Assembly: GCF_019649055.1 (NCBI RefSeq)
Contig: NW_026570223.1
Coordinates: forward strand, 682,001-746,000
Length of the DNA: 64,000 nucleotides
Reading direction: 5' to 3'
Origin: Paramacrobiotus metropolitanus
Lineage: Eukaryota > Tardigrada > Eutardigrada > Parachela > Macrobiotidae
Positions 6,509-50,108 of the stretch are shown piece by piece. The position numbers were made by a program, and so were the translations under genes. Under the pieces are notes generated by a model that worked only from the letters and a program-made list of their open reading frames with translations, was not told the origin of the DNA and made no database searches. Position 1 is the first letter of the stretch; the number at the start of each line of letters is the position of its first letter.

Positions 6509-7450
6509 ATGAAGCTCGCTATCCTGGCTGCTCTATTGGCTGTCGCGGCTACAAGCGGTAAGTGACCTTTATTAAGGCTTTAGCGAGCTGAAAGATTTGT
6601 TTTTCGCTGCCGTGACGCTTGTTCGTAATAACGCTGATGGTTGCAGTGGCTAGCGGACATCACCGACGACGCTCCGAATGCTGCAGTGCATGGAAGCGCT
6701 ACATTGTCCCGATTTCCTCCTCGGTGGCACCAACAAAACCCACCACTAAGCCGTGGCAGTAAGTTGTTTTTACTCAAATTTTAATTGACTGTTAATCTTT
6801 AGCCGTCGATGCACCAAATACCGTAAAGGCAACTCGCATGTGCTTCGTTTTGTACTGTTGAAGACACCCATGTCTAAATAAAGGCGATCATAATTGTTTT
6901 CGCTAAACAGTTTGTTTACAAATGCTTTTAATGACTACTGCTTATCGCCAGTGTTGCCACGGGTCGCATTGCTAACAGTAATGAGTTTTTTTTAATCAGG
7001 TACGCCGTCCGCGTGGGTCAGAGCCTGTTCATGACCTCGGTGCGCGCCTTCACTTCCTTCGCCAACCGCACCATCATCAGTCCGGGCGGCACCTACAACG
7101 AAGCCATCCAGGTGATGAGCTTGACGGAGCAGATCCTCAACGAAGCCGGCTGCACCTGGAACGACGTGCACGATGTAGTGGCGCTCATCACCGCCGGCCC
7201 CACCGACTACCCCGTCATCGACACCGCCATGAACGACTTCTGCGCCACCCACGGCTGCTCCGGCGTAAGTACAACGTAGTCTTCCTTGATTGCCTTTTTT
7301 CTAAGCGACTCTTCTTTATTTCCATAGTTCCCTTGGACTGGTCATCTGCGTACTTCTCCATCCTTCAGCGGTGGCGCCACCGTCGAATTCACCGTCCAGG
7401 CTAGCAACTGCAACTGGACAGGAGAAGATAACGAGTGCTCGTGCGAATAA
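6509..7450 (+). CDS. secreted RidA/YjgF-like cysteine-rich protein, copy A
   Basis: Four exons, 6509-6557, 6647-6758, 7000-7264 and 7328-7450, give 182 residues. All introns are GT-AG. Residues 1-17 form a signal peptide (MKLAILAALLAVAATS). A short ECCS and Pro/Thr linker (APTKPTTKPW) follows. The core, about residues 55-168, resembles the RidA/YER057c/UK114 fold: YAVRVGQSLFMTS, then SLTEQILNEAGCTWNDVHDV, VIDTAMNDFC and GHLRTSPSFSGGATVEF. Arg150 and Glu162 sit where RidA enzymes keep their catalytic Arg and Glu. The mature protein has eight cysteines, consistent with disulfides outside the cell. Cytosolic RidA proteins hydrolyse reactive enamines/imines; activity here is untested. The RidA assignment is from motif pattern only. 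Paralogues B, C and D share every intron position. Confidence 0.75.
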
Positions 7451-8289
7451 TGAGAAAGCCTTGTCTTTTTGCCGTGTGTCAGAATCATTTCTAGCTGTAT
7501 ATTAAGGAACTATCACTTATGTGACTGAGGAACTGAGGGTCAACAATTAATTACTGTCCAGTGAAAATGTTAAATTTACTCTTAAAACCGTAAATTAATA
7601 ATTCATGAGCTGATAATTTGTGAACTATCAACGAATGTTAAATTTGATCTTTAAAACTGTGAGTTACATGTATCTGTTGGTAATTCTGGAAACATTAAAA
7701 ACTTAACTGCTATACTGAACACTGATGCGCAATTCCAACGAACTGTAAGAAACCCAGGGAAGAACTACGTATGTAGTACATATGAACATACCAAGCACTA
7801 CGATCACAGCCAATCCCAAAAACCATTCTTTAGAAAGCTTCAGCAATAGTCAGACTGGAACGGCACATGAAGCCTAAATAACAAAGCGTCATTATTGATT
7901 TACGAGACATGACATAACATAATAATGACTCGTACATAAGTATTGTATATGACCATACAGTATTAGCTAAGAAATTAAACCGGAATTGCACAAACAACAT
8001 AATATCAAAATTAATAGTAAGCACCGGTTTGTATGTACGCAGAATTGCAGACCGCTTTTTGTACAGCGAATTCGTACTGAACTTTGCCAACAAAATTACC
8101 ATGTGTCAAGAAACGACTACCTTCTTGTTTTGACTGTTGATGCGAAAGCGCTTCTTAAATAAATGTCCTTGCGAATACGAAATTCAAACATTGGTATACC
8201 AATATGCCCTTCAAAGTTACAAAATTATCCAGTACACCCAAGTTTAATGAATTTTCAAATGTTACCTGCTTTGCATGCATAGCTCCCTG
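7451..8289. other. gene-free stretch
   Basis: 3' flank of gene A. The open frames are short and without recognisable domains. Confidence 0.4.
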
Positions 8290-8544
8290 TACAACCAGTG
8301 GTACTGTAAGACGGCGATGGATCCATAAAAGCCGGCTGCTGTAGAGGAACAACCTACGCTGGTTGTTGTCCCTTCACGAAAGGCAGTCGATCTAACACAT
8401 AAGCAGCTGCGCTGCGGGATAATGATATACCGGCTGCGTGCTTGCAAAAGTGTGATGAAGTCGGTAGCATTACTACGCAACTTGCACATATATACACAGA
8501 TACGGGTAGAGCAGATATAGAGTCAAAATGAACTGTCTCTGGCA
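8290..8544 (-). pseudogene. MS4A-like relic, 3' part (interrupted by the insertion)
   Basis: The minus strand reads MCKLRSNAT followed by a broken proline/glutamine-rich tail. At DNA level it aligns with the end of gene M3 (19713-20579), including GGACAACAACC and the CAGCAGCCGG TTTTCATGG-like stretch, with several indels. The homology stops at 8544, where the retroelement starts, and resumes at 11304. It is a dead paralogue of M3. Confidence 0.7.
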
Positions 8545-8650
8545 ATTATTGTTCCCTGGTTCTGTTACCGTACACACAAATAATGCCATATCAAAAAGGG
8601 GGGTGATTTATTGATTACTGACAACACGCCCGCGAAGCGGGAACAACCTC
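8545..8650 (-). repeat. split direct repeat B2
   Basis: About 106 bp, plus-strand start ATTATTGTTCCCTGGTTCTG, end CGAAGCGGGAACAACCTC. It forms the 3' terminus of the element and matches 8839-8945 apart from one A/G difference seen. Confidence 0.8.
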
Positions 8651-8653
8651 TGA

Positions 8654-8838
8654 AAAAAAAATCTAAACTTCATCATTGCCGGACGCAGTGCCAAGTGTGG
8701 GTGCATACACTGCGAACAGCTATATATAGTACACGCTGACCATTGACCATCAAACCACTGAACAGACAGGACAGACCACAGCGCTCCACCCACCATCACC
8801 AGGTCCAATAATATGCAGATTATTGGCATAATCTTTCC
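8654..8838 (-). repeat. split direct repeat A2
   Basis: About 185 bp, from AAAAAATCTAAACTTCATCA to GCATAATCTTTCCC. It appears identical by eye to 11119-11303. Confidence 0.8.
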
Positions 8839-8945
8839 CATTATTGTTCCCTGGTTCTGTTACCGTACACACAAATAATGCCATATCGAAAAGGGGGGTG
8901 ATTTATTGATTACTGACAACACGCCCGCGAAGCGGGAACAACCTC
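8839..8945 (-). repeat. split direct repeat B1
   Basis: Second copy of the B repeat, directly abutting A2. It is followed by the internal region of the element. Confidence 0.8.
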
Positions 8946-9639
8946 CAAACCCCCAAGAGCAGAAAAACACAACACAAACAGATGGGTAAGTTGGTTATGA
9001 TCCGGATATTCCGATGGCGAGGCAAGTTGGAGCAACCAAAAAATCAGGAACCTTGCGCGTGGTTACGTCGGAAATCCACAAGACATTGACGTAGTGCCAC
9101 ACAGTGAAAACTGTGTCAAGGCGGATTACAAACAGACAGAAACCGAAAGGTCACACTTAAATTTCATTAAGACTTAAAAGTGTGGAGCACTTTATCGCCA
9201 ATAAACTTAATGAAAGCCAGCCTTATGAGACATTATAAAAAAAAATAATTAAAGTAGCGCCAAGCAGAAAATGTATTACAGCGAAATTTTAATTAAGGAT
9301 ATGCGCGGCAGCTAATATAGTTTATGCGTATTTTCCGAAGCCGGTGGTAAATAAAGCATTATGCCAAACTGCGACAATGTAGAACACTGCTTTTAGTCGG
9401 CTTGAGAAATAATGACTCCAGTAAATGAATAATGCAAATGATATTGATATCACTTGTTTGATAAATCTGGCGGGTTATTATTCTGCACATATAAAGAGGT
9501 CTTTCTCCGCAAAGGTTAGCAGGAGCTGTCCCACTTTCCCAGAGAGAAGCCTGTGAAAACAGGGTTTGCCTCACATGTCAAATCGCACAACAAAAGCAAA
9601 AATGCTTCTAACCCACATTCAGAATAAACGATAAGACAC

Positions 9640-9713
9640 AATGCGTCGCCGAAGCAATGCAATAATGCGTCGCCGAAGCAATGCAATAATGCGTCGCCGA
9701 AGCAATGCAATAA
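9640..9713. repeat. three tandem copies of a 24-bp unit
   Basis: The unit AATGCGTCGCCGAAGCAATG plus CAAT is repeated three times inside the retroelement. There are no spacers, so this is a minisatellite. Confidence 0.85.
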
Positions 9714-9898
9714 TTAAAATTCCAAGAACACCAGATAATCAAATGCGGACACACTGCAAATTACAATATGCGCTACTGGCGCGCAATAACAAGATGACCC
9801 AGTAATAAAAATTTCTAGTCAGACCACAATACAGAGCCAAATAAAGGCGACGCAGACCCGTTGAGTCTGCACTGCCAAAGTAATTAAGACAAGCTAAA

Positions 9899-11111
9899 TT
9901 AATTATCAGTGTCAGTAGGGCTCGCAGCTCCTGAGTCTCGGTGGCCATGATAGCCATGCCCGCGTTTCCCGCCTTCACCACAGACGTGCGAATAATAGCA
10001 GGAAGCAGATGACCGAGAGCAGTTGTCTTCTTGAAAGGCAAAGCAGCATGCAAACTTATAGCGGGACATTTTGGCGCCACTGCGACCGCGAAAAGGCTGA
10101 CCTTTGTCGCTTTGATCGGCGCCATGCTCTGTTCGGCGATTAATCGCATGAAAATGCTTAGAACTGACAGTATTTCGTGCTTGGTAATCATTTAACGAAA
10201 ACCCTTCGTTCTCAGCAGAATGTCGAAGGTCAGTGTCAAATTCAAGAACAGCCTCATCCGTAAAATTACAACGCATAGAAGCCAAGTATTCGTTATATTC
10301 GAGATGCTCCAGGAGCGTCTCTGCATACTGTCCAGACAGAGTTTTGCACAATTTAACCGCTGTTCGCCAGCTGTGAACGGAAAACTCATCCAGTGAAAGA
10401 TCAAGAGGAGAAACATGCTTGCTTTTCGACCCTGGTTTAGGGCACGCCAGCTCATGCGGCCTCTGCAGTTTACGTGCTTCCGTTGGGAAGCAGTTAAAAC
10501 TTTTGGCCATAAACTCAGACTTATCACTCTTAACTGAAATGACTGAAACAGAGCGGTGCAAGCATGCCGGCTTCAGATTATCATACTCACCCGCGGGTAC
10601 CACTGCTGCGGGGAAGATTGACCTCCTTGCGGTCGGCGTGACCTTTGACTGCACGCTGGCCAGGACTGCCGTGCGGTGGGCTGGCTTCGCGGAAAGGGGG
10701 AATTGGCTTGGGTGGCTTTTCCCGACCGCGGCCGCTGTTCTCGGCACGGATGAATCGCTCCAGGATGCAACGAACTCCTTCACGGCTTACAATATCCAGG
10801 TTACTTGGGAACTTGGAAGATTCTCCAAGGCACAACAGGGCAGACTTGCTGGATATCCCTTCGGCTTCCAGTTCACTCTGGCATTTCCTGTCCAACTTCA
10901 GTTCTACAACCACTTTGGCAATGGAATCGGTGTCATCCACAGGGAACATCCGAGGCTCTAGAAGCTGCAAAAGTGCGTTCTTGCCGTCGGTATCCACATG
11001 AGAAATATCTAACTCAACACACAGTTCCCTCAACTTCTGAACGCTAAGCTTACGCAAAGCGGACTTTGACGCTGGCACTACCATGGCGTAAACAGATATG
11101 GGATTAACCAA
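9899..11111 (-). pseudogene. Gag-like ORF1 of the DIRS-order element (SAP-like domain and zinc finger), frameshifted
   Basis: Two overlapping minus-strand frames form one protein broken by a frameshift between about 10600 and 10780. The first (11111-10587) carries a SAP-like helix pair, SALRKLSVQKLRELCVELD, typical of DNA-binding proteins. The second (10783-9899) holds a PLDLSLDEFSVHSWRTAVKL region and ends in a cysteine/histidine cluster, CCFAFQEDNC then CYYSHVCGEGGKRGHGYHGH. That cluster resembles the nucleocapsid-like finger in DIRS-type Gag proteins. The frame ends 950 bp before B1, and nothing in between resembles reverse transcriptase or tyrosine recombinase. A second start at 11084 is possible. 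The family is inferred from this finger and from the surrounding split direct repeats. Confidence 0.6.
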
Positions 11112-11118
11112 AATTAGT

Positions 11119-11303
11119 AAAAAAATCTAAACTTCATCATTGCCGGACGCAGTGCCAAGTGTGGGTGCATACACTGCGAACAGCTATATATAGTACACGC
11201 TGACCATTGACCATCAAACCACTGAACAGACAGGACAGACCACAGCGCTCCACCCACCATCACCAGGTCCAATAATATGCAGATTATTGGCATAATCTTT
11301 CCC
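11119..11303 (-). repeat. split direct repeat A1
   Basis: The 5' terminal repeat of the element, beginning GGGAAAGATTATGCC on the minus strand. It matches A2 at 8654-8838. Confidence 0.8.
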
Positions 11304-11345
11304 GAAATCGAGCATGAGCGTCTGGAAGGTTAGGTTGGCATCGGT
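11304..11345 (-). pseudogene. MS4A-like relic, part upstream of the insertion
   Basis: GAGCATGAGCGTCTGGAAGG and GTTAGGTTGGCA align with M3 (AACATGAGCGCCTGAAAGGT, CAGGTTGGCA), encoding an ANLTFQ-like stretch on the minus strand. Similarity ends after this short piece. Confidence 0.6.
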
Positions 11346-11718
11346 GCTTTGTGTTGTGATCAAGCTACCAAGATCGATCATAACTACTCTGCACAAAACA
11401 ACTGCCGAGGAAGCGCGGCAAAATGCTTTTGTTACAGTTGTATGCGTATGTATGAAATCCTTTCGATTGCATCGGAATAAAACTTTGATATAACGGTGCC
11501 TCACCAATATCAGTTTTACCATCAATTTCTGTTTCCCCGTAACCGGTCACATAAGTTGACAGTCAACAATCAACCAATGGCTTAAAAGACATTTTGGAGA
11601 TTGAACCATAAAAAATTAGCCCTCTCAGACGTAAAATTCCAGTTGGTATCAACAAGATATAACAACTCGTAACAGAAAAGGAAGTCATTCCGTGACAAAA
11701 AGAAGCACCGTTAAACCA

Positions 11719-12500
11719 TCAGGCAGACCTTGTTCTGTTGGATGAGGGGCTGTCCCATGTCGATTCCCTGCTTTGTGGAGGCGCTGTCGGTCCAGCTGGT
11801 TGCGTCGGCACGAAGTACATGGGCTGACCTGCTTGATTGCAGACGAGAGCCTGTGCTCCAGGATAAACACCGGGTGGCGGAAAGACGATCTGCGCCACCT
11901 TCAATGTCTTGGGCATCTTGCACAGATTGATTCCCGCTGCGACCGTCTGTCCCACGTTGGCCAGAAACATGAGGATATGCAGACCAAACTGCACACAAAG
12001 TCCCAGAAAGGTACCTGACAGCGCGATCAACACCACCGAGGTCATGGCGCCCAGAATACTCATAACGGTACACGCAATCAGGAGAGCCCTTCGTGATGCT
12101 GGCGCAGTGTCCGTCGGCAGACGGGCACCGCCCACGATACCCAGAATCCCAGTGATGATGAAGAAGGTGCCCATGACGTAGAACACCGAACCGACGGCGC
12201 TGTACATTTTGGCTGGGTCGCTTAACAAAACGAAGAATCCTGCAGATCGCGATAGCATTTTAAGAACGTACAAGTTCCACCATGGCAACCATGACCAAAT
12301 AATTTACTTAACTTATGATTAGCTAATGCGCAGTGACAGACAGCACGCCAGAACCGTTATGCGCTAAGGTTACCTATGATGTCATTCAGGTTTAGCGCCA
12401 TTCCTACAACAATCTGTATGATGGCGAAGACCACCACCGGAATGCGGTTCCACAGGCGAGTGGCGTTAGGACTGGATGTCGGTGACGTTTGCCGATTCAT
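11719..12500 (-). CDS. MS4A/CD20-like four-pass membrane protein M1
   Basis: Exon 1 is 12374-12500 and exon 2 is 11719-12239, joined in phase 1, giving 215 residues. Exon 1 encodes a short N-terminus and TM1 (RIPVVVFAIIQIVVGMALN). Exon 2 encodes TM2 (GSVFYVMGTFFIITGILGI), TM3 (LLIACTVMSILGAM), TM4 (FGLHILMFLANVGQTVAAG) and a cytosolic tail with VFPPPGVYPGAQALVC and GQPMYFVPTQ. Paralogues M4, M5 and M6 end in GQPLIKQNN(V/I)YQ. In M1 that ending (GQPLIQQNKVCL) is present but out of frame, so a small indel near 11765-11780 has changed the last residues. The protein would sit in a cell membrane; partners are unknown. It may be a functional variant or an early pseudogene. Confidence 0.7.
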
Positions 12501-12758
12501 GATTGTCTAGCTGTGAAACAATACTGAAATAATCGGTTGGTGTTGCATAGAAAAACTCCTTCATTGCGTCAGCGAATCACTATTAAGCCAGGTTAACCGC
12601 CGCTAGGCGAGACGGTTAGACGGGTTTGGTAGTAGCTTACTGCATAGTTTTTACTAATAGCGGCAGGATTGCCCAGCTCTTTTACCGTGCAATACGAAAA
12701 AGAGCGCTGCGTTGAGCAAGCAAGTTAGAGACGTTTTACACTTCACGGTTTTCTTTTT

Positions 12759-13260
12759 GGTGACCACTCCGTACACACCCTTTCACACCCTTCCACTCCG
12801 TACACAACCATTCGGCACTACCTTTATCTGCGTGCACTAACTTTTATTTTTTTAATTTTTCACAGCAGAGTTATTTCTGGAACTGCAGAGTTTTTTCGTT
12901 AACAGCAGTTATTGCTGCATAATTCAAAGCATCATTGTCAGTTACAAAATCGAATTCCCGTGACAAAATTATTCTAGGCGCCCTTGTGCCGGTTTTTCTT
13001 CGCAGGGTTTGGACAGTGCCGCTTTCGAAAGAGTTTTCGACCCAGTTTCGTAGGTCTCTCCCTGTGTAAGAAGTTGCCGCAGGGTCTGGTAGTGCAATTT
13101 TGTAGGTAGCGCAGTTTAAAAGTTTAGTAGTGTAAGGTAGCGCGGATTGGTAGTGTACGGAGTGAATGGTAGTGTCAAAGGTTGTGCACGGAATGAAAGG
13201 TAGTGCAAAAGGTTGTGTACGGAGTGGAAGGGTGTGAAAGGGTGTGTACGGAGTGCTGAA
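12759..13260. mobile_element. foldback/MITE-like element with repetitive inverted ends
   Basis: The left end, GGTGACCACTCCGTACACAC then CCTTTCACACCCTTCCACTC, is mirrored on the right by GGAGTGGAAGGGTGTGAAAG and GGTGTGTACGGAGTGC. Each arm holds several degenerate units of the form CTCCGTACACAACC and CACTACC. No transposase is present. A third, partial end copy lies at 63719, so the family is dispersed. Confidence 0.65.
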
Positions 13261-14515: not shown

Positions 14516-15090
14516 CAGTGTTCGTTAAACCCATTTTACATCGCAAATTTAGATGTTTAAATTTTGGCGGTAAAATCTGGTGCACTGCTTTCATCCATCG
14601 GCGGTAAGCCAGTATTTACTCGTACATTCACGCGCCATACTGATAAAAAGCAAGCAAATGGTTGACATTATTCTGGTACATGTGTTTACTGCTTCCTGGC
14701 TTCTCGATCTTTGGTTTCCGGTAAGAACTGGCCGGCACGATGCGGCATAGATGCCTTCAAAACGATAATGCCTCTAAAACCGCTGGCACTTTATCGGCAT
14801 CTCGTTGAAAATCCGGACATCAAAACGTAACCAAGCACATGAAAACAAGTTGAAACCAGCACTAGCTATTTCTCATATCACTGATATTATCGTTTTTTCC
14901 GCATAATTCCGTTTGTCAGGTTATATAAGCGTCATGTGTGGTACACTGTTGATCAAGCTATACTACTCTCTTGAAATGCTAACATAACTTTTTATTTCCG
15001 CCTCCTCTAGACTGAGAGTTAACATTAACGGCCTGGAAAATGCATATATATATGTATAAGCGGTGTGCAAAATTGAAGCTTCCATCAGTT
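14516..15090 (+). promoter_or_regulatory. promoter and conserved upstream block of secreted gene B
   Basis: TATATATATGTATAAG at about 15045-15060 lies 30 bp before TCAGTT at 15085-15090. The upstream region matches that of gene A (for example TTTATCGGCATCTCGTTGAA then AATCCGGACAT). Confidence 0.65.
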
Positions 15091-15171
15091 ATATAGTGTC
15101 CAATTCTACCTTGACCTTTTCTTGGAATCTTGTTATATTTTACAGTTCTTAACTTCCTTTCGCTTTCTACC

Positions 15172-16203
15172 ATGAAACTCGTTATCTTGGCTGTTTTGTT
15201 GGCTGTCGCTGCTACGAGCGGTAAGTGCCGGTAGCCAGCTGATCGACTGTTATTAGCAGTTATTCATTATCATAGATCCCTCAATTCATTTTCATGCTCT
15301 TGGCTTCAGTAGTCGGTGGACATAACCGAAGGCATCCAGAGTGCTGCAGCAAATGGAAACGCTACATTGTCCCGATTTCCCCGTCGGTGGCACCAACCAA
15401 ACCCACCACCAAGCCGTGGCAGTAAGTTGTTACTGTTTTCCCTAATGACGAAAGTTAATCTGACCTAACTTAGAAGTTTCTACATTAAGCCAAAAATTGC
15501 AATTTGCAATTTGCTCATATTTTTATGGAATTTTAATATTTTAGCCATCATAAACACTAAAATCTAATACCACAAAGGCAGCTCGTAGAGTCTCCCTTTA
15601 TAATAAATACTATTCCTAATAATGAAGATAACATAAATTACAATTTCTTGTAAACACATCAAGCTTTTGGTTTGCAAAAACTGTTGACTTGTAACCGGTT
15701 ACCGTTATCCCCGGCATTATTATAAGTAATTCCCTTTATGGATCACTAGGTACGCCGTCCGCGTGGGTCAGAGCCTGTTCATGACCTCGGTGCGCGCCTT
15801 CACTTCCTTCGCCAACCGCACCATCATCAGTCCGGGCGGCACCTACAACGAAGCCATCCAGGTGATGAGCTTGACGGAGCAGATCCTCAACGAAGCCGGC
15901 TGCACCTGGAACGACGTGCACGATGTAGTGGCGCTCATCACCGCCGGCCCCACCGACTACCCCGTCATCGACACCGCCATGAACGACTTCTGCGCCACCC
16001 ACGGCTGCTCCGGGGTAACTACATTGTGCTTTACCTTGATTGACTTCTTTTAATAAGCGGCTCTTCTTTTGTAACCGTAGTTCCCTTGGACTGGCCATCT
16101 GCGCACTTCTCCATCCTTCAGTGGTGGCGCCACCGTTGAATTCACCGTCCAGGCCAGCAACTGCGACTGGACCGGAGAGGATAACGAGTGCTCTTGCGAA
16201 TAA
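15172..16203 (+). CDS. secreted RidA/YjgF-like cysteine-rich protein, copy B
   Basis: Four exons, 15172-15220, 15310-15421, 15750-16014 and 16081-16203, encode 182 residues with the same intron phases as copy A. The signal peptide is MKLVILAVLLAVAATS and the mature N-terminus contains PECCSKWKRYIVPISPSVAP. Exon 3 (RidA-like core) differs from copy A at one base only, the last of the exon. Exons 1, 2 and 4 carry several differences and the introns are largely unalignable. Arg150, Glu162 and all eight mature cysteines are kept. Gene M2 lies immediately downstream in opposite orientation, mirroring gene A and the M3-like relic. Secretion is well supported; enzymatic function is not known. Confidence 0.75.
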
Positions 16204-17868: not shown

Positions 17869-17899
17869 GCTGTACAGAAAACTTCAAACTTTATAAGGC

Positions 17900-19090: not shown

Positions 19091-19092
19091 AT

Positions 19093-21246: not shown

Positions 21247-22070
21247 TTAAGCCTTCTGGTAGACATTGTTCTGCTTGATCAGCGGCTGTCCCACATCGGT
21301 TCCCTGCTGCTGCTGCGGGGGTGCTGTCGGCCCAGTGGACTGCGTCGGCAGGAAGTACACGGGTTGGCCGTCGGGATCGCAGATGAGTGCCTGCGCTCCG
21401 GGGTAAGTCCCGGGGGACGGGAAGACAATCTGCGCCACCTTCAGGGTCTTGGCCCGCTTGGGCATCTTGCACAGATTGATCACCGCAACGACCGCCTGTC
21501 CGACGTTGGCCTGAAACATGAGGATATGCAGACCGAACTGCACACACAATCCCAGATCCACAACCGACAGAATGATCAACACCACCGAGCCAATGGCCCC
21601 CAGGATGCTCATAACGGCACAGGCAATCAGGAGGGCCCGGCGGGATGAGGGCGGCGTGTCCGCCGGCAGACGCGCACCGCCCTTGATGCCCAGGATCCCG
21701 GTGATGACGAAGAAGGTGCCCATGACGAAGAACACCGAGCCGACAGTGCTGTACAGCTTGGCGGCATACTCTCTATCCAGATAGCGTGAGTTGCGGAAGT
21801 AGATAAATCCTGCAAATCATATCCCAGCAGTGGAACACGTCAAGGACTATAACTGAACGTCGACACCGTCCTCTCATCCAGTAACCATCATTATTGTCAT
21901 AGAATTGATTTACGCCTTAGACTTTTATTAGAGTTATACATACCGATAATGTCGTTCAGGTTAAGCGCCATTCCGACAACAAGCTGGATGATCCCGAAAA
22001 CCAACACGGGGACGCGGTTCCACAGCCGAGTGACATTAAGACTGGATGGCGCGGCGGTTTCCTGCTTCAT
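21247..22070 (-). CDS. MS4A/CD20-like four-pass membrane protein M4
   Basis: Exon 1 is 21944-22070 and exon 2 is 21247-21809, phase 1, giving 229 residues. TM1 is RVPVLVFGIIQLVVGMALNL. Exon 2 gives TM2 (GSVFFVMGTFFVITGILGIK), TM3 (LLIACAVMSILGAIGSVVLI) and TM4 (FGLHILMFQANVGQAVVAV). The tail contains NLCKMPK, VFPSPGTYPGAQALIC, GQPVYFLPTQ and the subgroup ending GTDVGQPLIKQNNVYQ. The frame is intact over its whole length. The closest relatives in the window are M1, M5 and M6. The extracellular loop between TM3 and TM4 is very short, unlike M2 and M3. Confidence 0.75.
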
Positions 22071-22900: not shown

Positions 22901-22971
22901 TTTTTTTTTAGTTTTTTTTTTTTTTATTCGCACCAAAGCATTTACAGTAACTTAGAAGGCAATCCCTCTTA

Positions 22972-26782: not shown

Positions 26783-27522
26783 TCAAACGTTCTGGTAGAC
26801 ATTGTTCTGCTTGATAAGCGGCTGTCCCGCATCGATCGCGTTCTGCGGAAGCGCTTTCTGCCCGGTGGGCACGAAGTACATAGGCTGTCCCTCCTGATTG
26901 CAAACGAGAGCCTGCGCTCCGGGATACGTCCCCGGAGCCGGGAAGACGATCTGCACCACCTCCAAGGCCTTGGGCATCTTGCACAGATTGATCCCGGCCG
27001 CGATGGCCTGTCCCAGGTTGGCCACCACCATGAGCATATGCAGACCGAACTGGACGCATGGTCCCAGATTGATGAGGGACAGCGCGATTAACGGCGCCCC
27101 GCCCGCCGTCCCCAGAATGCTCATCACGGCGCAGACTATCAGGATACGGCGTCGCGAGCACGTTGGAGTGTCCGCTGGCAGACGGTCACCGGCCTTGATG
27201 CCCACGATTCCTGTGAGGACGAAGAACGTTCCCAGTGCAAAGAACACCGAGCCGACGCGGGTGTAGGCCACGGCTCCGTAGCGCAGGCGCCGGTTCCCGT
27301 AGGTTGGGAATGCGATGAACCCTGCAAAGCGTAATATGTCGTTGAAATTCACAAAACACAAAAAGAACGGTTGCGCATCAGTTTGTTTTGCGGTTTACCG
27401 ATAATGTCGTTCATTATCAGCGTCACTCCGACGACAATCTGGATAATCCCGAAGACAACCACGGGGATGCGGTTCCACAAACGAGTGGAGTGGGGACAGA
27501 ATTTCGCGGTCGGTTCCTGCAT
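26783..27522 (-). CDS. MS4A/CD20-like four-pass membrane protein M5
   Basis: Exon 1 is 27399-27522 and exon 2 is 26783-27321, phase 1, giving 220 residues. An in-frame ATG at 27534 would add four residues. TM1 is RIPVVVFGIIQIVVGVTLI. Exon 2 gives TM2 (GSVFFALGTFFVLTGIVGIK), TM3 (LIVCAVMSILGTAGGAPLI) and TM4 (FGLHMLMVVANLGQAIAAG). The tail has NLCKMPK, VFPAPGTYPGAQALVC, GQPMYFVPTG and the ending AGQPLIKQNNVYQ. The frame is intact. It keeps the short M1/M4/M6-type loop. Function is unknown; conservation of tail motifs across paralogues suggests a binding role for the cytosolic tail. Confidence 0.75.
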
Positions 27523-27822: not shown

Positions 27823-27827
27823 TAACA

Positions 27828-33554: not shown

Positions 33555-33599
33555 CGTTGAATGAGTTTTGCAGAGTGAAGATGACACACATAGAAAAAC

Positions 33600-40564: not shown

Positions 40565-41122
40565 ATAACGTTTTTAATCTTGTTTTCAATTTGGCTGTGA
40601 TAGCGGTGATGCATAGAATAACGATGGGAATTGTGTTTCGTTCGTCGGCTAATGGCCATGAGAGAGAATCTGTTGTAATGTTTAAGTTTGTTTTTATTTT
40701 AAACGGGGAGGTATTTTGTGCTTGTTTCGACTATGTTTTTTAATCTTCTAAGTTGTTTTTGTGCCGATGTACATTATTGTGGGCACCGTCGAACGATGGT
40801 TGGTTCATCTGTTGTGTTGTGGCGTAAATGCACATTATGCGAGCCGAAATGGCGAAGAAAAGCGCGCTTTATATGATGCGGTTGGACGTCGTGCATGGTT
40901 GTTACAGCACAGTTCGTTGGAATTAAATCTCGCATCAGTGCTTAGTATATCATTTCAGGTGTTGATGTTGTCGCAATTAACACACCCACCGTTTTTTAAA
41001 GAAGACAGTTCAAAATTACTTTTTCAAATAGCAAATGGCGCACAGATGGCTGGTGTTGGTAGCCAATTCGGTATGCAGTTGATGAAGATGCTTAAACACG
41101 GCAAAAAGGCAAATCCAAATCA
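40565..41122. other. 3' flank of the LENG8-like gene
   Basis: A plus-strand frame at 40761-41231 runs antisense into the last exon of gene C. It has no domain and was not called. Confidence 0.4.
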
Positions 41123-42308
41123 TTATTCGCAAGAGCACTCGTTGTCCTCTCCGGTCCAGTCGCAGTTGCTGGCCTGGACAGTGAATTCAACGGTGGCGCC
41201 GCCACTGAAGGATGGAGAAGTGCGCAGATGACCAGTCCAAGGGAACTAGGTTACAAAGAAAAGTTGCTTAATAAAAGAAGGCAATCAAGAAAAACTGGCT
41301 TGTACTTACGCCGGAGCAGCCGTGGGTGGCGCAGAAGTCGTTCATGGCGGTGTCGATGACGGGGTAGTCGGTGGGGCCGGCGGTGATGAGCGCCACTACA
41401 TCGTGCACGTCGTTCCAGGTGCAGCCGGCTTCGTTGAGGATCTGCTCCGTCAAGCTCATCACCTGGATGGCTTCGTTGTAGGTGCCGCCCGGACTGATGA
41501 TGGTGCGGTTGGCGAAGGAAGTGAAGGCGCGCACCGAGGTCATGAACAGGCTCTGACCCACACGGACGGCGTACCTAATTAACAGAACAAATTACAGCCA
41601 ACGTCGGCTATGACTTGTAACCAATAAAGATATTATTTTGTAAACGAAATGCTCAACTTAGAAATCAAAATCCTTGTTAATTTTTATTGTTATCACATTG
41701 TAAAGAAAGATATATATTGTACATATTTGTAAGTGACCTTTAGCACGTTAGGAACTTAATGATGATTAAGGGATAAAAAGTCATTATGAATGTGTCCCGT
41801 TAGTGGATTATATATTATCATTTACGAAGAAGGTGTAAACGATTAACGTATGATGTGCAAAAGATTATTTATGCTATTTGGATGAAAAAAGTCGCAAAAG
41901 TAGCAATACACATGTATAAGGCATAAGCTGGTGACCTTATTATTAAGTACACAAACATAAGTATCTGCTGGCATGACCTTTATGCTGTCGTTGGTATTTG
42001 GTGCAAGTAGGAAACTTACGTTAGCTTTCAAAAAGATACAGAACTTACTGCCACGGCTTGGTGGTGGGTTTGGTTGGTGCCACCGACGAGGAAATCGGGA
42101 CAATGTAGCGTTTCCACGCACTGCAGCATTCGGAGTGTCGTCGGTGATGTCCGCCAGCCACTGCAACAAAAGCAGCATAATGAGCTAATCCATGACCGTT
42201 GCATCAGCGAGTAACATCCACTAACACGCAAAAGCTCAGGATATGCAAAGGTCACTTACCGCTAGTAGCTGCAACCGCCAGCAAAACAGCCAAGATAGCC
42301 AACTTCAT
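41123..42308 (-). CDS. secreted RidA/YjgF-like cysteine-rich protein, copy C
   Basis: Four exons on the minus strand (42260-42308, 42049-42160, 41310-41574, 41123-41245) encode 182 residues with the same phases as A and B. The signal peptide is MKLAILAVLLAVAATS. The linker carries SECCSAWKRYIVPISSSVAP. Exon 3 differs from copy A at one synonymous base noticed by eye (CGC to CGT). Arg150, Glu162 and eight mature cysteines are kept. The promoter is shared with copy D almost base for base. This gene and the neighbouring small gene at 43716-44480 form one unit of a tandem segmental duplication whose second unit is 48922-52644. Confidence 0.75.
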
Positions 42309-42383
42309 GGTGGATGGCGAGGAAAACGGAGGACTGTGACGAGAAACGAAGTAAAGACTGAAATGGAACTTTAGACACGATGT

Positions 42384-42422
42384 AACTGACGAAAGCTACG
42401 GATTTTGCAGCTCGCTTATATA
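42384..42422 (-). promoter_or_regulatory. core promoter of secreted gene C
   Basis: On the minus strand TATATAAG (42415-42422) lies about 30 bp before TCAGTT (42384-42389). The region back to about 42800 matches the upstream blocks of the other three copies. Confidence 0.7.
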
Positions 42423-43715
42423 CTGTGAATTTTCCATACTGCAAGCCAAGTACTCTGGTCTGGAGCACAGGGATAAAAAGTTATGTCAGCAATCAAAATA
42501 CGGCAGTAAACCGTAAGCTAAACCGTACTACACATGGCTCTTATGCAACCAGTAAAACGGAATATGCGAAGAAAACGATCCCTGATATCAGTGAATATGG
42601 GAAACTGGTGCTGGTTTCAGTTTGTTTGCATGTGCCTTGTTACGCGTTGACGTCCGGCTTTTCAATGAAGAACCGATAAAGTGCGAACGCTTCCAAAGAC
42701 ATTACCGTTTTACGACCGTTTTGTCGGCTGATTGTTACCGGAATGTGGAAACTGAGAATCACGGGAACAGTAAATGCATATAACGGAATTATGACCGTTT
42801 GCTCACGTTTATCAGCGAGGCGCCCGAATGTGTTTGTAAATAGCGGCGTACAGCCGACGGATTAAAGCAGTGCACCAGGTTTCTCTGCCAAATGGATAAA
42901 TTTCCGCTGTAAAACCGGTTATCGAACACTGTAAATATTGCCAAGGTCGATACCGTTTAATCAAGGTCTTTTGTGTAAGCGTTCAACTGACCGTACGTAC
43001 AAATGCAACACCTGTATTAATACCAGCAATTTGATGTACTGTAAACCGTACAATTCATTAATATTGTCCACAACGTACATTTCATGTAAAAACATTAAAG
43101 TGTTTGACGAACACAGTTTGCAGAAAACTGATCATTCTATTTGACACAGGATACGCATTTCAAATGAACGTAAAAAACTCGCTGTTCAGAAACTTCTGGA
43201 AAATTCTCAGCAATAAAAGCGCAAGATCAGCTAAAAAAATTATACAACTGATGAGACAACTGACGACGTAAAACATAACAAAAAGACGAGTAAGCCGAGC
43301 GTTGCCGGTTGCTTCCACATTTGCTGCTTATCGCAGATAGTGGCACAAGAACGGTCTTGGTTCGCAAAAGAGTCGAGTGACTTCTCGGCCGGTGGTCACC
43401 GATCTGTAAAAAATGCCTTAAAACGTCAAAAAGTGAAACCAGCAACGGTTAATTCGAAACTGGCAAAGACTCTTGATTATTCTCTCTTGAACGCAGTTTA
43501 TATTTTCGTGCTCTCTGGCTTTTTCAGCTCTATCTAAATGGATTAATTTTGTTTGAAAATTCGGAGGTTTTTGTAATAACTGATCATATTCTTGGAATAA
43601 CACTGTAAAAGTAAAGTCACTTTAGAACCCGACGAAATAAAAATCCAGCAACGACATTAGTAAACACTAAACATTGCAGAAACACCGGACACGATTCATT
43701 TCCCATGGGACTGAC
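42423..43715. other. upstream flank of gene C, duplicated at 50223-51518
   Basis: Non-coding as far as can be seen. It aligns with the flank of gene D over most of its length (for example AAGTTATGTCAGCAATCAAAA and the CAGGATACGCATTTCAAA stretch), with indels. Confidence 0.6.
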
Positions 43716-44480
43716 TTATCTTTCAGCTGCCATGGCCATCCGCTTATTTCCGTTTGGCACTCTTTGAGTCTTACCGGTTAGCTGGGCTTGCTCTTTCCCA
43801 TTGCGGTAGCTGGGCGGACGGGGATCAACGAGAGGAACAGCGGCCACTTTCCGCACCGGCGCGGGAACATCATCGTCCAACGGTACCATATTCCTGCAGT
43901 CGAATACCAATTTAAGTACCTACGTTATTACTCAACAACAATCATCATCCAAATACAGATGCTACCAATAAAACCATAAAATACACCAACTATTATTAAG
44001 AAACACTAAATGCTCATTACTTTTCCGACTAACAGGAAGATTATCAGGATAGTTCACAAATAACGAGAACATTGTACATCTTACCTCCACATTTTCATTT
44101 GTTCTTTCCGGAATAATCTATGCTTTACAGGATAATACTTAAATACGGTCTTAAAAATGAATCCAGCCAGTAAGGCTTACGCTGCAAAACGCTGCATCGT
44201 AGCAGCAGCATTCGGATTCTCCTTGTTCCCATCAGGTATCACGTTACATTCGTGCTGATAACGAAACGCTTCCGTGGCGAAGGCGAGACGACAAGGACGG
44301 GCGAAAGGTTCAGTCTGAAAAATCCTGAATTAAAAAAAGCGCAAACTAACAGGCTTATGGGCGACAAAACACGTGCGGTAGCGGCCATATTGGTACGGCA
44401 ACGGATTGCGCTGGTGGAAAAGGAGGAATGGGAGCGATAGCAGCCGTGCGCGTTCCGGGAGTTGATGAATTTCCATGGCG
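43716..44480 (-). pseudogene. frameshifted copy of the small KEN-motif gene
   Basis: Exon 4 (43716-43893) and exon 3 (44181-44314) align with the intact copy at 51519-52644, and exon 2 sequence is recognisable up to about 44480. Exon 4 reads PLDDDVPAPVRKVAAVPLVD, parallel to the other copy. In exon 3 the intact copy has TATCACCGTTGC where this copy has TATCACGTTAC, a one-base loss near 44241 on the plus strand that brings an immediate stop. Exon 1 was not found. The copy is therefore probably dead, although C-terminal coding sequence looks well kept. Confidence 0.6.
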
Positions 44481-44676
44481 ATCTGCTGCAGAGAAAAGAT
44501 CAGGACGGCGGCTCGGCAGTTGGAAGAGCAATAATGTTTTTGGCGCTTCAGTTTAGTAATGCATATGCCAGAGTTTCCAATACTTTTTGTACCTGTATGC
44601 GTTGTTGAGTGCACATGCACACTGTGTACAAAGCATGCGCCCATCGTGCGATTTTCCCCGTTTACAGTACATAATT

Positions 44677-44715
44677 AAATTTTATGTTAAATTATGATAA
44701 TTTAACATAAAATTT
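44677..44715. other. perfect 19-bp AT-rich inverted repeat
   Basis: AAATTTTATGTTAAATTAT and its exact complement are separated by a single G. A cruciform could form. No coding role is seen. Confidence 0.8.
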
Positions 44716-45581
44716 TAATTTTGTCAAAGTTTATCTCTTGTTTTCGTACGGGCGCCAGCTGTACATAACACCTGTTGTATATTATTGGGTTTCATTCATT
44801 ATGAACCGATGAAGTTCGAGACAAGACAAACCATTGCTAAACATTAACAACAGTAAAAGCTTATTAAATCCTTCTGCCCTTTCATTATTGTACCTGCCAG
44901 GCTGCCACAGATGCCACCAATTGTATATTGTACTACGTTTAACTTACTGTATTAACGATAAGGTTTTTACCAATGAACAATTATTTTTCGGAATGTGTGA
45001 TGGATTCAAAACCAAAGACTCTTAAGTATACCTCGAGTATACGTAAATCGTATTTCAAAATGCGGAAATTCTGAAACCCTTAGAATAGAGCAGATTTTTT
45101 ACTGGCAAAGGGAATTCTGCGACATCTACTGTAGCCGACAAGCGGTACTTCTGTCTGTTCAAGTACAAGTACTTACTTTACGGGTTTTAACGCGTTACCG
45201 GCCGGAGGCGTACTGTACAGGTTTTTGCTCTTGTGTTGGATCTTACGTTCGATAACATACATCCTTCATACTGGCAAATGGTGTACTGTACTTCGTTATT
45301 TATGTACTTTTAAACAGTTCTTAGTTTTTCGAGATTTTATGTGGAATAGCAAAAGCAGAAATTTGAAATTCTGCTGTATGCATAAGTATGGATTATCTGT
45401 AGGGGGAATTTAAGGGCTGGGGCAAGCACTCTCTGTACTTGCTGCCGTCACCCTGCTAGTGTTTTACGTTGTGGCTGAACATGGAGATAAACAATATGAT
45501 GGATCCTTGCTGGCGAATGGTGTACTAGTACTTCGATATACATGCATGTACTAACTAATTTGTGTTTTTCCACTACTTTAG

Positions 45582-45624
45582 ATACGTACCACATAGTCAC
45601 ATACAATCTGTATGTGGTACGTAT
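45582..45624. other. 14-bp inverted repeat with extended flanks
   Basis: ATACGTACCACATA pairs with TATGTGGTACGTAT. Outside this, CTACTTTAG (45572) pairs again with CTAAAGTAG (45634). Confidence 0.7.
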
Positions 45625-46102
45625 ACCTAAAGACTAAAGTAGATTCATTTTAAGTTACTTCGGCACCAGCAAACTTAAACTGTTAAAATCAATGAAAATT
45701 CACGTAGGTACCTATGTAACGCTTGTCGCATGGCACACCACACGCGGGGTGCATGAGCCGTAAGTACGTCAGCAACAAGCGCTCTCGCTTCACGATCGCA
45801 GCCTGATCTAGTGATCTGCACAGCTGACAGCTGATCGTCATTTTTCTTTACCACTGCACTGACATTGAATATTGCTGCATATTGCATCTGGTTTTGTGGA
45901 TAAATGGTGTTAATGAAGTGGTGGTGGTGTTAATGATTTTGTATTCCGTCGTGCTCTATCCCCTTTCTCACATTATATCGTGCTTTTGGTGGAGAGTTCT
46001 CCGAGCTGCTTAACAGGGAGAACGTCCTGCATCGTCGGTTCTTCAGCTTTGGTCTGCATATCAGTGTGCAGTGTAAAGTGTTCATTACTGATAACAGCTG
46101 CA

Positions 46103-47972
46103 ATGGCAGACCGTCAGGAACCCGTTGCTGGCATTATCGACCATTTGCGGCGCACGCTGGCCAGTGGTAATCACAGCGACGTCCAGTTTACGGTAGGACG
46201 GCAGTTTGGGGAAGTGAAAACGCTGCAGGCACACAAGTACGCTGGATGCTGGATAGTAGATACGGTGGTGCATGGCCAGCCAACGCGGATGTTTGTACGG
46301 AATTTAAGGTGGTAATTTTGCAGGTTGGTGTTGAGCATCAACAGTGACGTCTTTGAGCGGATGTTCTACGGGAGTCTGTCGGAAAAAATGCGACGCTCCC
46401 ATCGATGTTCCTGATATTCTGCCAGACGCTTTCCTCAACATGCTCAGGTACAATACGACTTTACGTAAAAGTGGGTTTCTCGTTCTTGTGATTGAGAAAT
46501 GGTTTTGTTGTATTTGCGTTTATTTACGTTAGCTTTATGTATTCGGATACCGTGGAACATCTGGATATGAGCAACGCTGTGCAGACCATGTTTTGTGCCG
46601 TGAAGTACCACATTCAGCCGCTGTTTGATCGGTGCTCGGAGTTTATCGTTGGTCAGCTGAACGCGGAGAATTGTCTGTCTGTTCTGCAAAGTGTGAGTCT
46701 ACCGATTGTTTATGTGTGTTGTGATTGAAAGCGGGAGAGTCCACGCCAGTGTTTCGTAGGTCAAACTTCTGCATCCACCTACCGTTATCACGAAATGCTT
46801 GGAGCCTTGGAACTAGTGGATGAATACTCTGAAAACGTCTTGCAGTCGGAGCAGCTGATGTCCGTTGACCGTGACATCTTGGCGATGATTCTCGTACGTG
46901 ATACACTGTCGGCTGCGGAGCATCTCATCTACGAAGCTGTCGAAAAGTATGTGGTGAAGAGTGTACTTTTTCTACGGCATTCATTCCAAGAGTTAATGTT
47001 GAAAGGCTCGAAAAGGACGAATTTTTCTACGGTTTTGCGCAAACTTTTACTTAAACCCCTGCGCGCATACTGTATTTCCTCACGTTCAGTTAAACGTCGT
47101 CCTACTTAATATGATGATGACTTTGGCTGTCTGCATTCGTTTCGGATTTAATTTACTGAAGTTAAATTCAGTATCAAAATTTAACTAACTTTAGGCTCGC
47201 AGGATGGTATTACAACGTATGGTAATTAATGCATTGACTTTGAGAATAAGCATGAAATGTGCAGTTATCAGTGGATGCGGTGTCTCACAATCAGTGCGAT
47301 TCAGTTGCTGACTGCTGAGTGACTGAATACCTGTTTTTTTTTGAATGGACGCGCTATTGTACAAAATCTTTTGCATTTTCTTGCAGGTGGGCTGTGAATG
47401 CTTGCCAAATGCGCGAGCTGGATCCATCGGGCCAATCGACGTCAGATGCTGGGTACACTGTATCATGTCAGATTTCCACTCTTGCCGAATGTTTTGTTGG
47501 CGGATGGTCCCTTGAAGGTAACACAATTATCAACAGCCAGTTAAACATGATAGACGTCGGTTTTCATAATAACGTGGATATTATAACTTGGTCGTTATTA
47601 TAAAAGTGTATTGAATGTACTTACTGTATTGGTTTTTGCTGCAATGGGAGTAAGTACTGTATACTGGAATGGAATCCTGGATATAGTAGTGCTAACTGCT
47701 ATAGATATTTTATAACAGGATAACCATATACGACCCGTATGTAATATGGAGGTTGGCTGTAAACGGGTTTACTGACGATGGAGGAAATGGGGAGGATCTA
47801 CCGAATGAAGTATGCCACGGAGAAGCCGGTTGATCATTTCGTTGCGGCACGTCGTCAGCCTGTGAAGCGTCTAACAGCCTCCCAGAAAAGTGACACAGCC
47901 TTTCGCCACTGGTCTCGTGAAGATTTTTTCACACTATTCACGACCCTGGACACCGGAAATTCGGAGCAATGA
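46103..47972 (+). pseudogene. BTB-BACK domain protein (BTBD6-like), two frameshifts
   Basis: Six exons are traceable: 46103-46236, 46324-46447, 46533-46690, 46760-46946, 47387-47517 and 47784-47972. Exons 1-3 encode a BTB domain (SGNHSDVQFTVGRQFG, VLSINSDVFERMFYGSLSEK, DTVEHLDMSNAVQTMFCAVK). Exons 4-5 encode a BACK domain (ALELVDEYSENVLQSEQL, LIYEAVEKWAVNAC, RRQMLGTLYHVRFPLLPNVL). The frame is broken twice: an extra A in the run at 46382-46389 inside SEK-CDAP, and again near 47412-47425 before the RRQMLG segment. Splice sites and phases are otherwise consistent. BTB-BACK proteins of this type usually serve as cullin-3 adaptors. This copy is a recent pseudogene unless the two sites are assembly errors. 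Confidence 0.65.
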
Positions 47973-48921
47973 AGACACTAAGTCTTGCCAGTGCATGCCG
48001 AATGCGTGTGCGCGAAGGAAGCCCTGGAGAATGGAGATACTGGCACTTCCTCGTTTTCTTTGAAGATTCGGCGATGATACACAATCAGAATATTATCGGA
48101 AATACCGTGCTGCTATTTTTTCTGCTGTGATATTATGTGTTTAAAGCGTACGTGCTCACAGTTCTGTTTAAATTCTGTAGGGTTTTCTTATTTTGTGCGA
48201 AATGATTCTTACCGGTTAGTAATTAATTTTTATTATTGATGTACAGTACGTACTAGATACATATTTTACACGTGGCCGCTGTGCTGTACGTACGATACGA
48301 AACTGTACTTATACTACGTGTTGTCTTTCGCGTTTTTTGGCAGTAGTTCCATTATTGTGACCATTAATATTACTGCGCAACTGCGTGTCTCCTCGTTTTA
48401 CGTGGGTACGATTCCTGATTCTTCAGCTTCGGTTGCGAAAACTAGTAGTACTTAACTGCGAATTGCTGTTTGCGTGGCAATCATCAATAGCTACAAATTT
48501 ACGATTGAAATGGGTACTGTAATACTACTGACTGGTATAGATATTGTAAAAGTTTATACGTATGCTTCAATGTACATACCGCCATACCGGCTTATGGGCA
48601 CACAGCAATGCTGAGTGGCCGCTGATTTAATTAGCACATTAGTTGTTGTATTGAGGAGTTGTGCCCTACGTGGACATCGCTACGAACCGAATGCCTTTGA
48701 AACAGCGGGCTTTATTTGAATTTGTTGAAGGCTCGTTTGGTGGTCAGAGGACATTAAATTTAAGTAAGTGGAACAATACATGCATTGGTGCTCTTGCTAG
48801 ATAAATCATCTCATGAGCTGTTGGTGCTTTCACACTTAACGCGCCCATAATCGATAACACAATTTCGAAGAAAGAATTAATTCTTATCATTACTGACACT
48901 CGGCCAAAAAGGACGATCGCA
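47973..48921. other. gene-free stretch
   Basis: 3' flank of the BTB relic and of gene D. Nothing is recognised. Confidence 0.4.
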
Positions 48922-50108
48922 CTATTCGCAAGAGCACTCGTTGTCCTCTCCAGTCCAGTCGCAGTTGCTGGCCTGGACGGTGAATTCGACGGTGGCGCCG
49001 CCGCTGAAGGATGGAGAAGTGCGCAGATGGCCAGTCCAAGGAAACTACGGTTACAAAAAAAGAGCCGCTTACTAAAAGAAGTCAATCAAGGTAAAGCACA
49101 ATGTACATACGCCGGAGCAGCCGTGGGTGGCGCAGAAGTCGTTCATGGCGGTGTCGATGACGGGGTAGTCGGTGGGGCCGGCGGTGATGAGCGCCACTAC
49201 ATCGTGCACGTCGTTCCAGGTGCAGCCGGCTTCGTTGAGGATCTGCTCCGTCAAGCTCATCACCTGGATGGCTTCGTTGTAGGTGCCGCCCGGACTAATG
49301 ATGGTGCGGTTGGCGAAGGAAGTGAAGGCGCGCACCGAGGTCATGTACAGGCTCTGTCCCACACGGACGGCGTACCTAATTAACAGAACAAATTACTAAA
49401 GATAAGAATACAGCCAACGTCGGCCATGACTTGTAACCAATAAAGATATTATTTTGTAAACGAAATGCTCAACTTAGAAATCAAAATCCTTGTTAATTTT
49501 TATTGTTATCACATTGTAAAGAAAGATACTGTACATATTTTAAGTGATGAATAAGGGACCAAAAGTCATTATGGATGTGTCCCATTAGTGCATCATATTT
49601 TATCATTTACGAAGAAGGTGTAAACGATTAACGTATATAAAATGTGCAAAAGATTATTTATGTTATTTAAATGAAAAAAGTAATGAATAAAGTCGCAAAA
49701 GTAGCAATACGCATGTATAAGGCATAAGCTTGTGACCTTATTATTAAGTACAGAAACAGAAGCATCTGCTGACATGACCTTTATACTGTCGCTGGTATTT
49801 AGTGCAAGTAGGAAACTTACGTTAGCTTTAACAAAATGTACAACTTACTGCCACGGCTTGGTGGTGGGTTTGGTTGGTGCCACCGACGAGGAAATCGGGA
49901 CAATGTAGCGTTTCCACGCACTGCAGCATTCGGAGCGTCTTCGGTGATGTCCGCCAGCCACTGCAACAGAAGCAGCATAATGAGCCAATCCATGACCTTT
50001 GCATCAGCGAGTAACATCGACTAACTCCTTAATGCACTGGAATCGCAAAGGTCACTTACCGCTAGTAGCTGCGACCGCCAGCAGAACTGCCAGGATAATC
50101 AACTTCAT
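48922..50108 (-). CDS. secreted RidA/YjgF-like cysteine-rich protein, copy D
   Basis: Four exons (50060-50108, 49849-49960, 49111-49375, 48922-49044) encode 182 residues. The signal peptide is MKLIILAVLLAVAATS. The stop is TAG, unlike the TAA of A-C. Exon 3 has about four differences from copy A, one of them changing Phe to Tyr (QSLYMTS). Arg150, Glu162 and the eight mature cysteines are conserved. The third intron uses a GTATGT donor where A and C have GTAAGT. The gene and about 3 kb of flank are a tandem duplicate of the copy C unit. Secretion is well supported; a RidA-type deaminase activity is inference only. Confidence 0.75.

What the first reader, a model, noticed from the sequence alone, without database searches (positions are those of the whole stretch)
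6509..50108. A secreted, disulfide-rich RidA/YjgF-like family in four copies
Seen: four genes (6509-7450, 15172-16203, 41123-42308, 48922-50108) encode a signal peptide, a short Pro/Thr linker and a core with the RidA pattern (ILNEAGCTWNDVHDV, HLRTS, ATVEF). Arg150 and Glu162 sit at the positions of the RidA catalytic pair, and eight mature cysteines are constant. Known: RidA family members are normally cytosolic or organellar enamine/imine deaminases. Inference: this is an extracellular, disulfide-stabilised offshoot expanded in this lineage. It could be an enzyme or a recruited structural/defence protein.
Basis: partly seen in the sequence, partly recalled or inferred. Interest (0 to 1): 0.82.

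Follow-up and report, generated by a model that had tools for sequence, protein, structure and literature searches.

The report
Secreted disulfide-rich RidA-like tardigrade proteins
A water bear genome carries about twenty genes in which an ordinary household detoxifying enzyme fold has been given a secretion signal and extra cysteines and has lost key contacts of the parent enzyme, so it probably does a new job outside cells.

Summary
All four genes lie where stated: four exons each, a 182-aa product, a hydrophobic leader, a Pro/Thr linker and eight mature cysteines. Assembly size and longest contig nearly equal those of Paramacrobiotus sp. TYO; CAHS motifs agree with a tardigrade. The genome holds at least 21 copies: five on this contig, fourteen on C97, one each on C16 and C78. 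One is frame-broken.

The core is homologous to RidA: the family profile hits Rid proteins in 44 of 45 solved-structure matches, profile-profile E is 5e-13, and an intron shares site and phase with the genome's two canonical RidA genes.

It is not an orthodox RidA. The trimer-bridge lysine is aspartate in 20 of 20, and its acidic partner is lost in 20 of 20. Glu162 matches RidA Glu120 in 120 of 120 resampled alignments, but Arg150 matches the essential Arg105 in 18 of 60 with one RidA set and 0 of 60 with a broader one. The likeliest reading is a secreted Rid-fold protein with a remodelled ligand site.

The parts
6509..6557 (+). copy G1 exon 1: signal peptide MKLAILAALLAVAATS
   Evidence: open frame, GT donor, hydrophobic leader
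6647..6758 (+). copy G1 exon 2: ECC motif and Pro/Thr linker to KPW
7000..7264 (+). copy G1 exon 3: most of the Rid core, near-identical in all five C3 copies
7328..7450 (+). copy G1 exon 4: last hairpin (HLR, VEF; by homology), C-terminal cysteines, stop
15172..15220 (+). copy G2 exon 1
15310..15421 (+). copy G2 exon 2
15750..16014 (+). copy G2 exon 3
16081..16203 (+). copy G2 exon 4
42260..42308 (-). copy G3 exon 1
42049..42160 (-). copy G3 exon 2
41310..41574 (-). copy G3 exon 3
41123..41245 (-). copy G3 exon 4
50060..50108 (-). copy G4 exon 1
49849..49960 (-). copy G4 exon 2
49111..49375 (-). copy G4 exon 3
48922..49044 (-). copy G4 exon 4
6396..6401 (+). TATA-like element 113 bases before the G1 start codon, followed 33 bases on by TCAGT
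   Evidence: consensus match only
42417..42422 (-). TATA-like element 114 bases before the G3 start codon, TCAGT 33 bases on
   Evidence: consensus match only
50217..50222 (-). TATA-like element 114 bases before the G4 start codon, TCAGT 33 bases on
   Evidence: consensus match only
15045..15050 (+). TATA-like element 127 bases before the G2 start codon (a second match at -82)
   Evidence: consensus match only

Best explanation
This is a family of at least 21 tardigrade genes derived from an animal RidA gene. It was moved into the secretory pathway by a signal-peptide exon, given a cysteine framework, and remodelled at the RidA ligand cleft. Shown: gene structure, leader, copy number, homology to Rid proteins, shared intron, and loss of the trimer-bridge pair. 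Inferred: the product is exported and folds as a Rid/chorismate-mutase-like domain whose disulfides replace the lost inter-subunit salt bridge. Inferred and less sure: some of the invariant residues His148, Arg150, Glu162 and Gln166, on the last two strands where RidA has its cleft, form a site that binds a small carboxylate or carbonyl metabolite in extracellular fluid and perhaps hydrolyses it, as RidA hydrolyses imines.
For: Rid homology. Shared phase-2 intron directly after the PY/PW residues. Hydrophobic first exon before a Cys-bearing second exon in 14 of 20 family members modelled. Ser67, His111, Asp112, Trp145, His148, Arg150, Glu162 and Gln166 are invariant in 20 of 20 rows, 18 of them distinct, although the 15 members outside contig C3 are only 48-60% identical to the C3 core. 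NG86 dN below dS in 7 of 7 pairs tested, ratios about 0.31 to 0.84. TATA-like element 113-127 bases upstream in all four window copies.
Against: No structure, expression or activity data. Arg105, essential for RidA activity (PMC4433059, passages), is not securely matched. With all 39 Rid rows Arg150 falls on 108 in 56 of 60 resamplings; by strand alternation 108 would point away from the side of 105 and 107, which counts against Arg150 lining the cleft. Trp145 recalls the Rid4 and Rid7 subfamilies, which have Trp in place of that Arg and presumably serve other functions (PMC4433059, passages). Six of 20 members have no convincing signal exon in my automated models. TATA plus TCAGT-like element at 24-40 bases was paired in only 6 of 15 members examined.
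Confidence: 0.42

Rival explanations
1. The Rid fold was recruited as a non-catalytic structural or protective secreted protein (cuticle, eggshell, body-cavity or desiccation protectant), much as the secreted tardigrade SAHS proteins form a beta-rich, abundant family of their own.
For: Leader, cysteines, tandem expansion, and loss of the trimer salt bridge; the essential RidA arginine is not securely retained. The SAHS precedent (secreted, beta-rich, abundant) was seen in passages of PMC3429414.
Against: Strict conservation of His, Asp, Arg, Glu and Gln in 20 of 20 rows is more than a scaffold seems to need.
Confidence: 0.33
2. It is a genuine extracellular imine/enamine deaminase with RidA chemistry, in which Arg150 is the equivalent of Arg105, cleaning up imines released by secreted amine oxidases.
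For: Glu162 matches Glu120 in 120 of 120 resampled alignments; the unresampled alignment to the 30-row RidA profile puts Arg150 on Arg105.
Against: That placement needs two indels (+4, -3) within one hairpin and was recovered in 18 of 60 resamplings with the 30-row set and 0 of 60 with all 39 rows; Tyr17 is Trp in 15 of 18.
Confidence: 0.08
3. It is an effector or immune-type secreted protein, for example antimicrobial or feeding-related, diversified under conflict.
For: Tandem expansion with divergent copies on C97; in the window copies exon 2 gathers amino acid changes while exon 3 does not, though exon 3 seems to be homogenised.
Against: dN/dS below 1 in 7 of 7 pairs tested; Pfam gives the window protein no match but PF01042 and one chance-level hit.
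Confidence: 0.08
4. Not a Rid protein at all; the motifs are chance.
For: The window copy alone is below the Pfam and NCBIfam cut-offs.
Against: 44 of 45 profile matches in PDB sequences are Rid, hhalign E 5.3e-13 over the whole core, and the intron site and phase are shared.
Confidence: 0.02

Closest known systems
RidA/UK114/YjgF (PF01042, TIGR00004), e.g. goat UK114 1nq3, human 1oni
   Same: Homologous core; Glu120 equivalent kept; intron after PY at the same phase as in this genome's two canonical RidA genes
   Different: Leader, 6-8 cysteines, trimer Lys replaced by Asp, acidic partner lost, Arg105 match unresolved and unlikely with the broader set
Canonical RidA with a signal-like N-terminus in the same genome (G000 C84:79608, locus L022)
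   Same: Also carries a hydrophobic N-terminus; strong PF01042 match, 116.2 bits
   Different: Keeps PAR and VVK, has no such Cys framework, and ends in an Asn/Ser-rich stretch plus a hydrophobic tail that could be a GPI signal (hydropathy only); groups with the C1 RidA, not with this family
Rid4 and Rid7 (YjgH-like) subfamilies
   Same: Rid proteins without the essential Arg, which is replaced by Trp (PMC4433059, passages); YjgH 1pf5 is among the profile hits at E 5.3e-4
   Different: Largely confined to bacteria (same paper); no leader or Cys framework mentioned in the passages I saw; whether Trp145 is the same position was not resolved
Tardigrade SAHS proteins
   Same: Works-like parallel only: a secreted, beta-rich, multi-copy protein family in tardigrades (PMC3429414, passages)
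   Different: No sequence relation seen; no lipocalin or FABP chain among the 45 profile matches

Membership tests
RidA subfamily | Curated score cut-offs of PF01042 and TIGR00004 | tested here: not met
   Window copy 21.4 against 27.3 bits and 17 against 106.25 bits. Four C97 paralogue exons do pass PF01042, one of them only with its neighbours in the frame
RidA subfamily | Essential Arg105 (R165 in Arabidopsis) | tested here: inconclusive
   Arg150 on 105 in 18 of 60 resamplings with the 30-row set, 0 of 60 with 39 rows. The reference has Arg in 31 of 39 rows; all 8 rows without it were among those dropped to make the 30
RidA subfamily | Conserved Glu120 | tested here: met
   60 of 60 and 60 of 60 resamplings; Glu in 20 of 20
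RidA subfamily | Tyr17 of GPY | tested here: not met
   Trp 15, Tyr 2, Val 1 of 18 rows with that column; Tyr 35 and Phe 2 of 37 filled reference rows
RidA subfamily | Lys-Glu salt bridge between subunits (K136-E182 in Arabidopsis, PMC4960622) | tested here: not met
   Lys in 38 of 39 reference rows, Asp in 20 of 20 here; partner Glu/Asp in 37 of 39 reference rows, Thr/Ala/Lys/Ser in 20 of 20 here. Columns equated by alignment and spacing, not by structure
RidA subfamily | Imine/enamine hydrolase activity | not testable with these tools
   Needs purified protein
RidA subfamily | Homotrimer | not testable with these tools
   Structure prediction switched off
Rid superfamily (YjgF/YER057c/UK114) | Profile-level homology over the whole domain | tested here: met
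   hhalign E 5.3e-13 from PW to the last strand; 44 of 45 PDB-sequence matches; PF01042 in 16 of 17 members at E<=1
Rid superfamily (YjgF/YER057c/UK114) | Chorismate-mutase-like fold | not testable with these tools
   Inferred from homology only
SAHS | Sequence relation to SAHS or FABP | tested here: not met
   No lipocalin or FABP among the 45 chains matched at E<=10

The most novel reading that the evidence does not exclude
Tardigrades turned a housekeeping Rid enzyme into a secreted, disulfide-locked and perhaps non-trimeric protein family with a new active site built from invariant His, Arg, Glu, Gln and an Asp that replaces the trimer lysine. This would be a second case, beside SAHS, of an intracellular metabolic fold exported and expanded in this phylum, with its own extracellular chemistry.
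Probability: 0.3. Interest if true: 0.78.

Novelty: new variant of a known kind. Interest (0 to 1): 0.6.

Why it matters
Rid proteins of known structure are trimers with ligand clefts between subunits (PMC4960622, passages). A branch with a secretion signal that has lost the inter-subunit salt-bridge pair yet keeps a strict set of polar residues is a natural experiment on what the fold can do without its standard assembly. It also adds a candidate extracellular protein family to an animal group studied for surviving desiccation. Two searches that pair tardigrades with UK114 or imine deaminase returned one mite genome paper and nothing (listing only).

Tried and rejected
Bacterial origin: a scan of the prokaryote genome collection with two conserved peptides of the family gave 29 pattern matches and no relative. 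The patterns are strict, so this is weak evidence of absence. Canonical RidA queries in viral contigs also found none; these were made to widen the RidA set, which one search then did.

Descent from the signal-bearing C84 RidA: not supported. In the tree (quick method) C84 groups with C1 (SH-aLRT 88) and about 3 changes per column separate the family from the RidA rows, so its exact sister is not resolved.

SAHS test through the lipocalin family: two FABP-like genes found, no SAHS among the matches shown; abandoned in favour of the CAHS peptide.

It was used for no conclusion; alignment A3 that contains it misaligns the last hairpin and was dropped.

Rows dropped: 9 of 39 Rid sequences (L050, L052, L054-L060) before the 30-row RidA profile. 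L061 and L062 of the 38 loci were never used. The frame-broken copy at C97:376059 was left out of all counts of 20. Alignment A1 holds 17 of the 20 intact cores: two identical C3 cores and G1 (one residue different) were left out. The 60 resamplings of each test alternate two hhalign settings (with and without realignment).

Automated exon-1 models failed or looked spurious for 6 of 20 members, and mis-chose the exon 2 acceptor in G3 and G4; the models are used for those.
Full report
What is there. G1 and G2 are on the plus strand, G3 and G4 on the minus strand. Each has four exons (49, 112, 265 and 123 bases) with GT-AG introns and codes for 182 residues: a hydrophobic leader, a short basic stretch, ECC, a Pro/Thr linker ending in KPW, a core of about 115 residues and a Cys-bearing tail. 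Eight cysteines follow the leader. A TATA-like element lies 113-127 bases before each start codon.

Organism. The genome is 169.8 Mb in 533 contigs with C1 at 4,484,719 bases. The published Paramacrobiotus sp. TYO assembly is 170.5 Mb in 684 scaffolds with a longest scaffold of 4,484,941 (PMC8277472, passages). A peptide of CAHS proteins, a family reported from tardigrades and not found in other phyla (PMC3429414, passages), matches 13 places at E<=0.1, best 7.3e-7. I take the organism to be Paramacrobiotus metropolitanus or a very near relative; that species name is my inference.

Family size. Three queries found the same 21 core loci: five on C3 (four in the window and one about 2.3 kb before it), fourteen on C97, one on C16 and one on C78 (the tool calls such counts lower bounds). 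Twenty have open cores; C97:376059 is frame-broken. The 15 members outside C3 are 48-60% identical to the C3 core. In seven of seven pairs tested dN is below dS, so they behave as real genes. A convincing signal-peptide exon was modelled in 14 of 20.

Homology. The single window protein is a weak Rid match (Pfam 2.6e-4, below cut-off; best PDB chain 5.5e-4). The family profile makes it firm: 18 PDB sequences at E<=0.001, all Rid, and 44 of 45 at E<=10 (one of the 44, 2ig8, by recall); PF01042 matches 16 of 17 members at E<=1; hhalign gives 1.2e-9 against three animal RidAs, 5.3e-13 against 30 RidAs and 1.5e-9 against all 39. Independent of score, intron 2 of the family and the first coding intron of both canonical RidA genes of this genome fall after the second base of the residue that follows PY/PW. 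Descent from an animal RidA gene is therefore likely.

What changed. In 39 Rid reference rows the VVK lysine is Lys in 38 and Arg in 1; here it is Asp in 20 of 20. The second glutamate of the IEIEA strand is acidic in 37 of 39 reference rows; here it is Thr, Ala, Ser or Lys in 20 of 20. In Arabidopsis RidA, K136 and E182 form the inter-subunit salt bridge, and K136A severely impairs assembly (PMC4960622, passages). I equate K136/E182 with these two columns by alignment and spacing, not by structure. Tyr17 is Trp in 15 of 18 rows with that column. Invariant in 20 of 20 are Ser67, His111, Asp112, Trp145, His148, Arg150, Glu162 and Gln166, together with Cys105, Cys140 and Cys170 (18 distinct sequences).

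The catalytic pair. The glutamate claim holds: all 60 resamplings in each of two tests put Glu162 on Glu120. The arginine claim does not. With a 30-row RidA set, from which the eight rows without Arg105 had been dropped, Arg150 falls on 105 in 18, 107 in 16, 108 in 16, a gap in 9 and 104 in 1 of 60. With all 39 rows it falls on 108 in 56, 109 in 2 and a gap in 2. The unresampled 30-row alignment puts it on 105 with two indels; the three-row alignment puts it on 109. My own reading, anchored on the shared FP as, puts a variable Thr/Ala on 105, His148 on 107 and Arg150 on 109, one strand face; the 39-row result (108) would instead turn Arg150 away from that face. Only a structure can settle this. 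Arg105 is essential for imine hydrolysis; it is Trp in Rid4 and Rid7 and variable in Rid5 and Rid6 (PMC4433059, passages).

How it may work. Shown: leader, cysteines, homology, lost trimer pair, invariant polar residues. Inferred: export, disulfide locking in place of the inter-subunit bridge, and a cleft around Glu162 with some of His148, Arg150 and Gln166 that binds a small carboxylate or carbonyl compound, possibly with hydrolysis. A purely structural or protective role is the main rival. I put about 0.42 on the first, 0.33 on the second and 0.08 on classical RidA chemistry.

Exon 3 puzzle. Among the five C3 copies, 3 of 46 four-fold sites vary in exon 3 against 8 of 20 in exon 4 (Fisher p 0.002). 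Between the four window copies introns are 64-81% identical, except 86-94% for introns 1-2 of G3/G4 and 94% for intron 3 of G2/G4. Third-position GC in exon 3 is 0.90-0.92 in C3 copies against 0.57-0.83 in the 15 others. Short, GC-biased gene conversion held in by diverged introns fits; over-polishing of a long-read assembly is the artefact to exclude. It also means the near-identity of these four proteins is not by itself evidence of extreme constraint.

Novelty. A new variant of a known kind: a Rid-superfamily branch with a secretion signal that fails three tested RidA-subfamily features, keeps one and leaves the essential arginine undecided. Paper searches pairing tardigrades with RidA, UK114 and imine deaminase found nothing relevant in their listings, nor did the 15 of 90 papers listed by a looser search; only open-licence full texts are held. 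I could not examine other tardigrade genomes.

Noticed in passing
window 7000-7264, 15750-16014, 41310-41574, 49111-49375 and L020:1220-1484: Exon 3 of the five C3 copies is almost identical even at silent sites (3 of 46 four-fold sites vary) and very GC-rich at third positions (0.90-0.92), while exon 4 and most introns have diverged: looks like exon-confined, GC-biased gene conversion, or assembly over-polishing.
   Followed up: partly
L022 (G000 C84:78001-81000): A canonical RidA with PAR and VVK motifs carries a hydrophobic, signal-like N-terminus, five N-glycosylation sequons and a hydrophobic C-terminal tail that could be a GPI signal (hydropathy only): possibly a second route of RidA to the cell surface.
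   Followed up: partly
window 11804-12103, 21353-21652, 26865-27164, 54985-55294: A repeated family of small proteins with several hydrophobic stretches lies between the RidA-like genes; the one translated (11719-12288, minus) has no Pfam match above cut-off.
   Followed up: partly
L016:9541-9990 (G000 C97 about 376,041-376,490): One family member is frame-broken inside exon 3 while its exon 4 is open: a young pseudogene or an assembly error.
   Followed up: no
window 8655-8839 and 11119-11303: A 185-base direct repeat, 100% identical, 2.5 kb apart, outside the genes studied; nature unknown.
   Followed up: no
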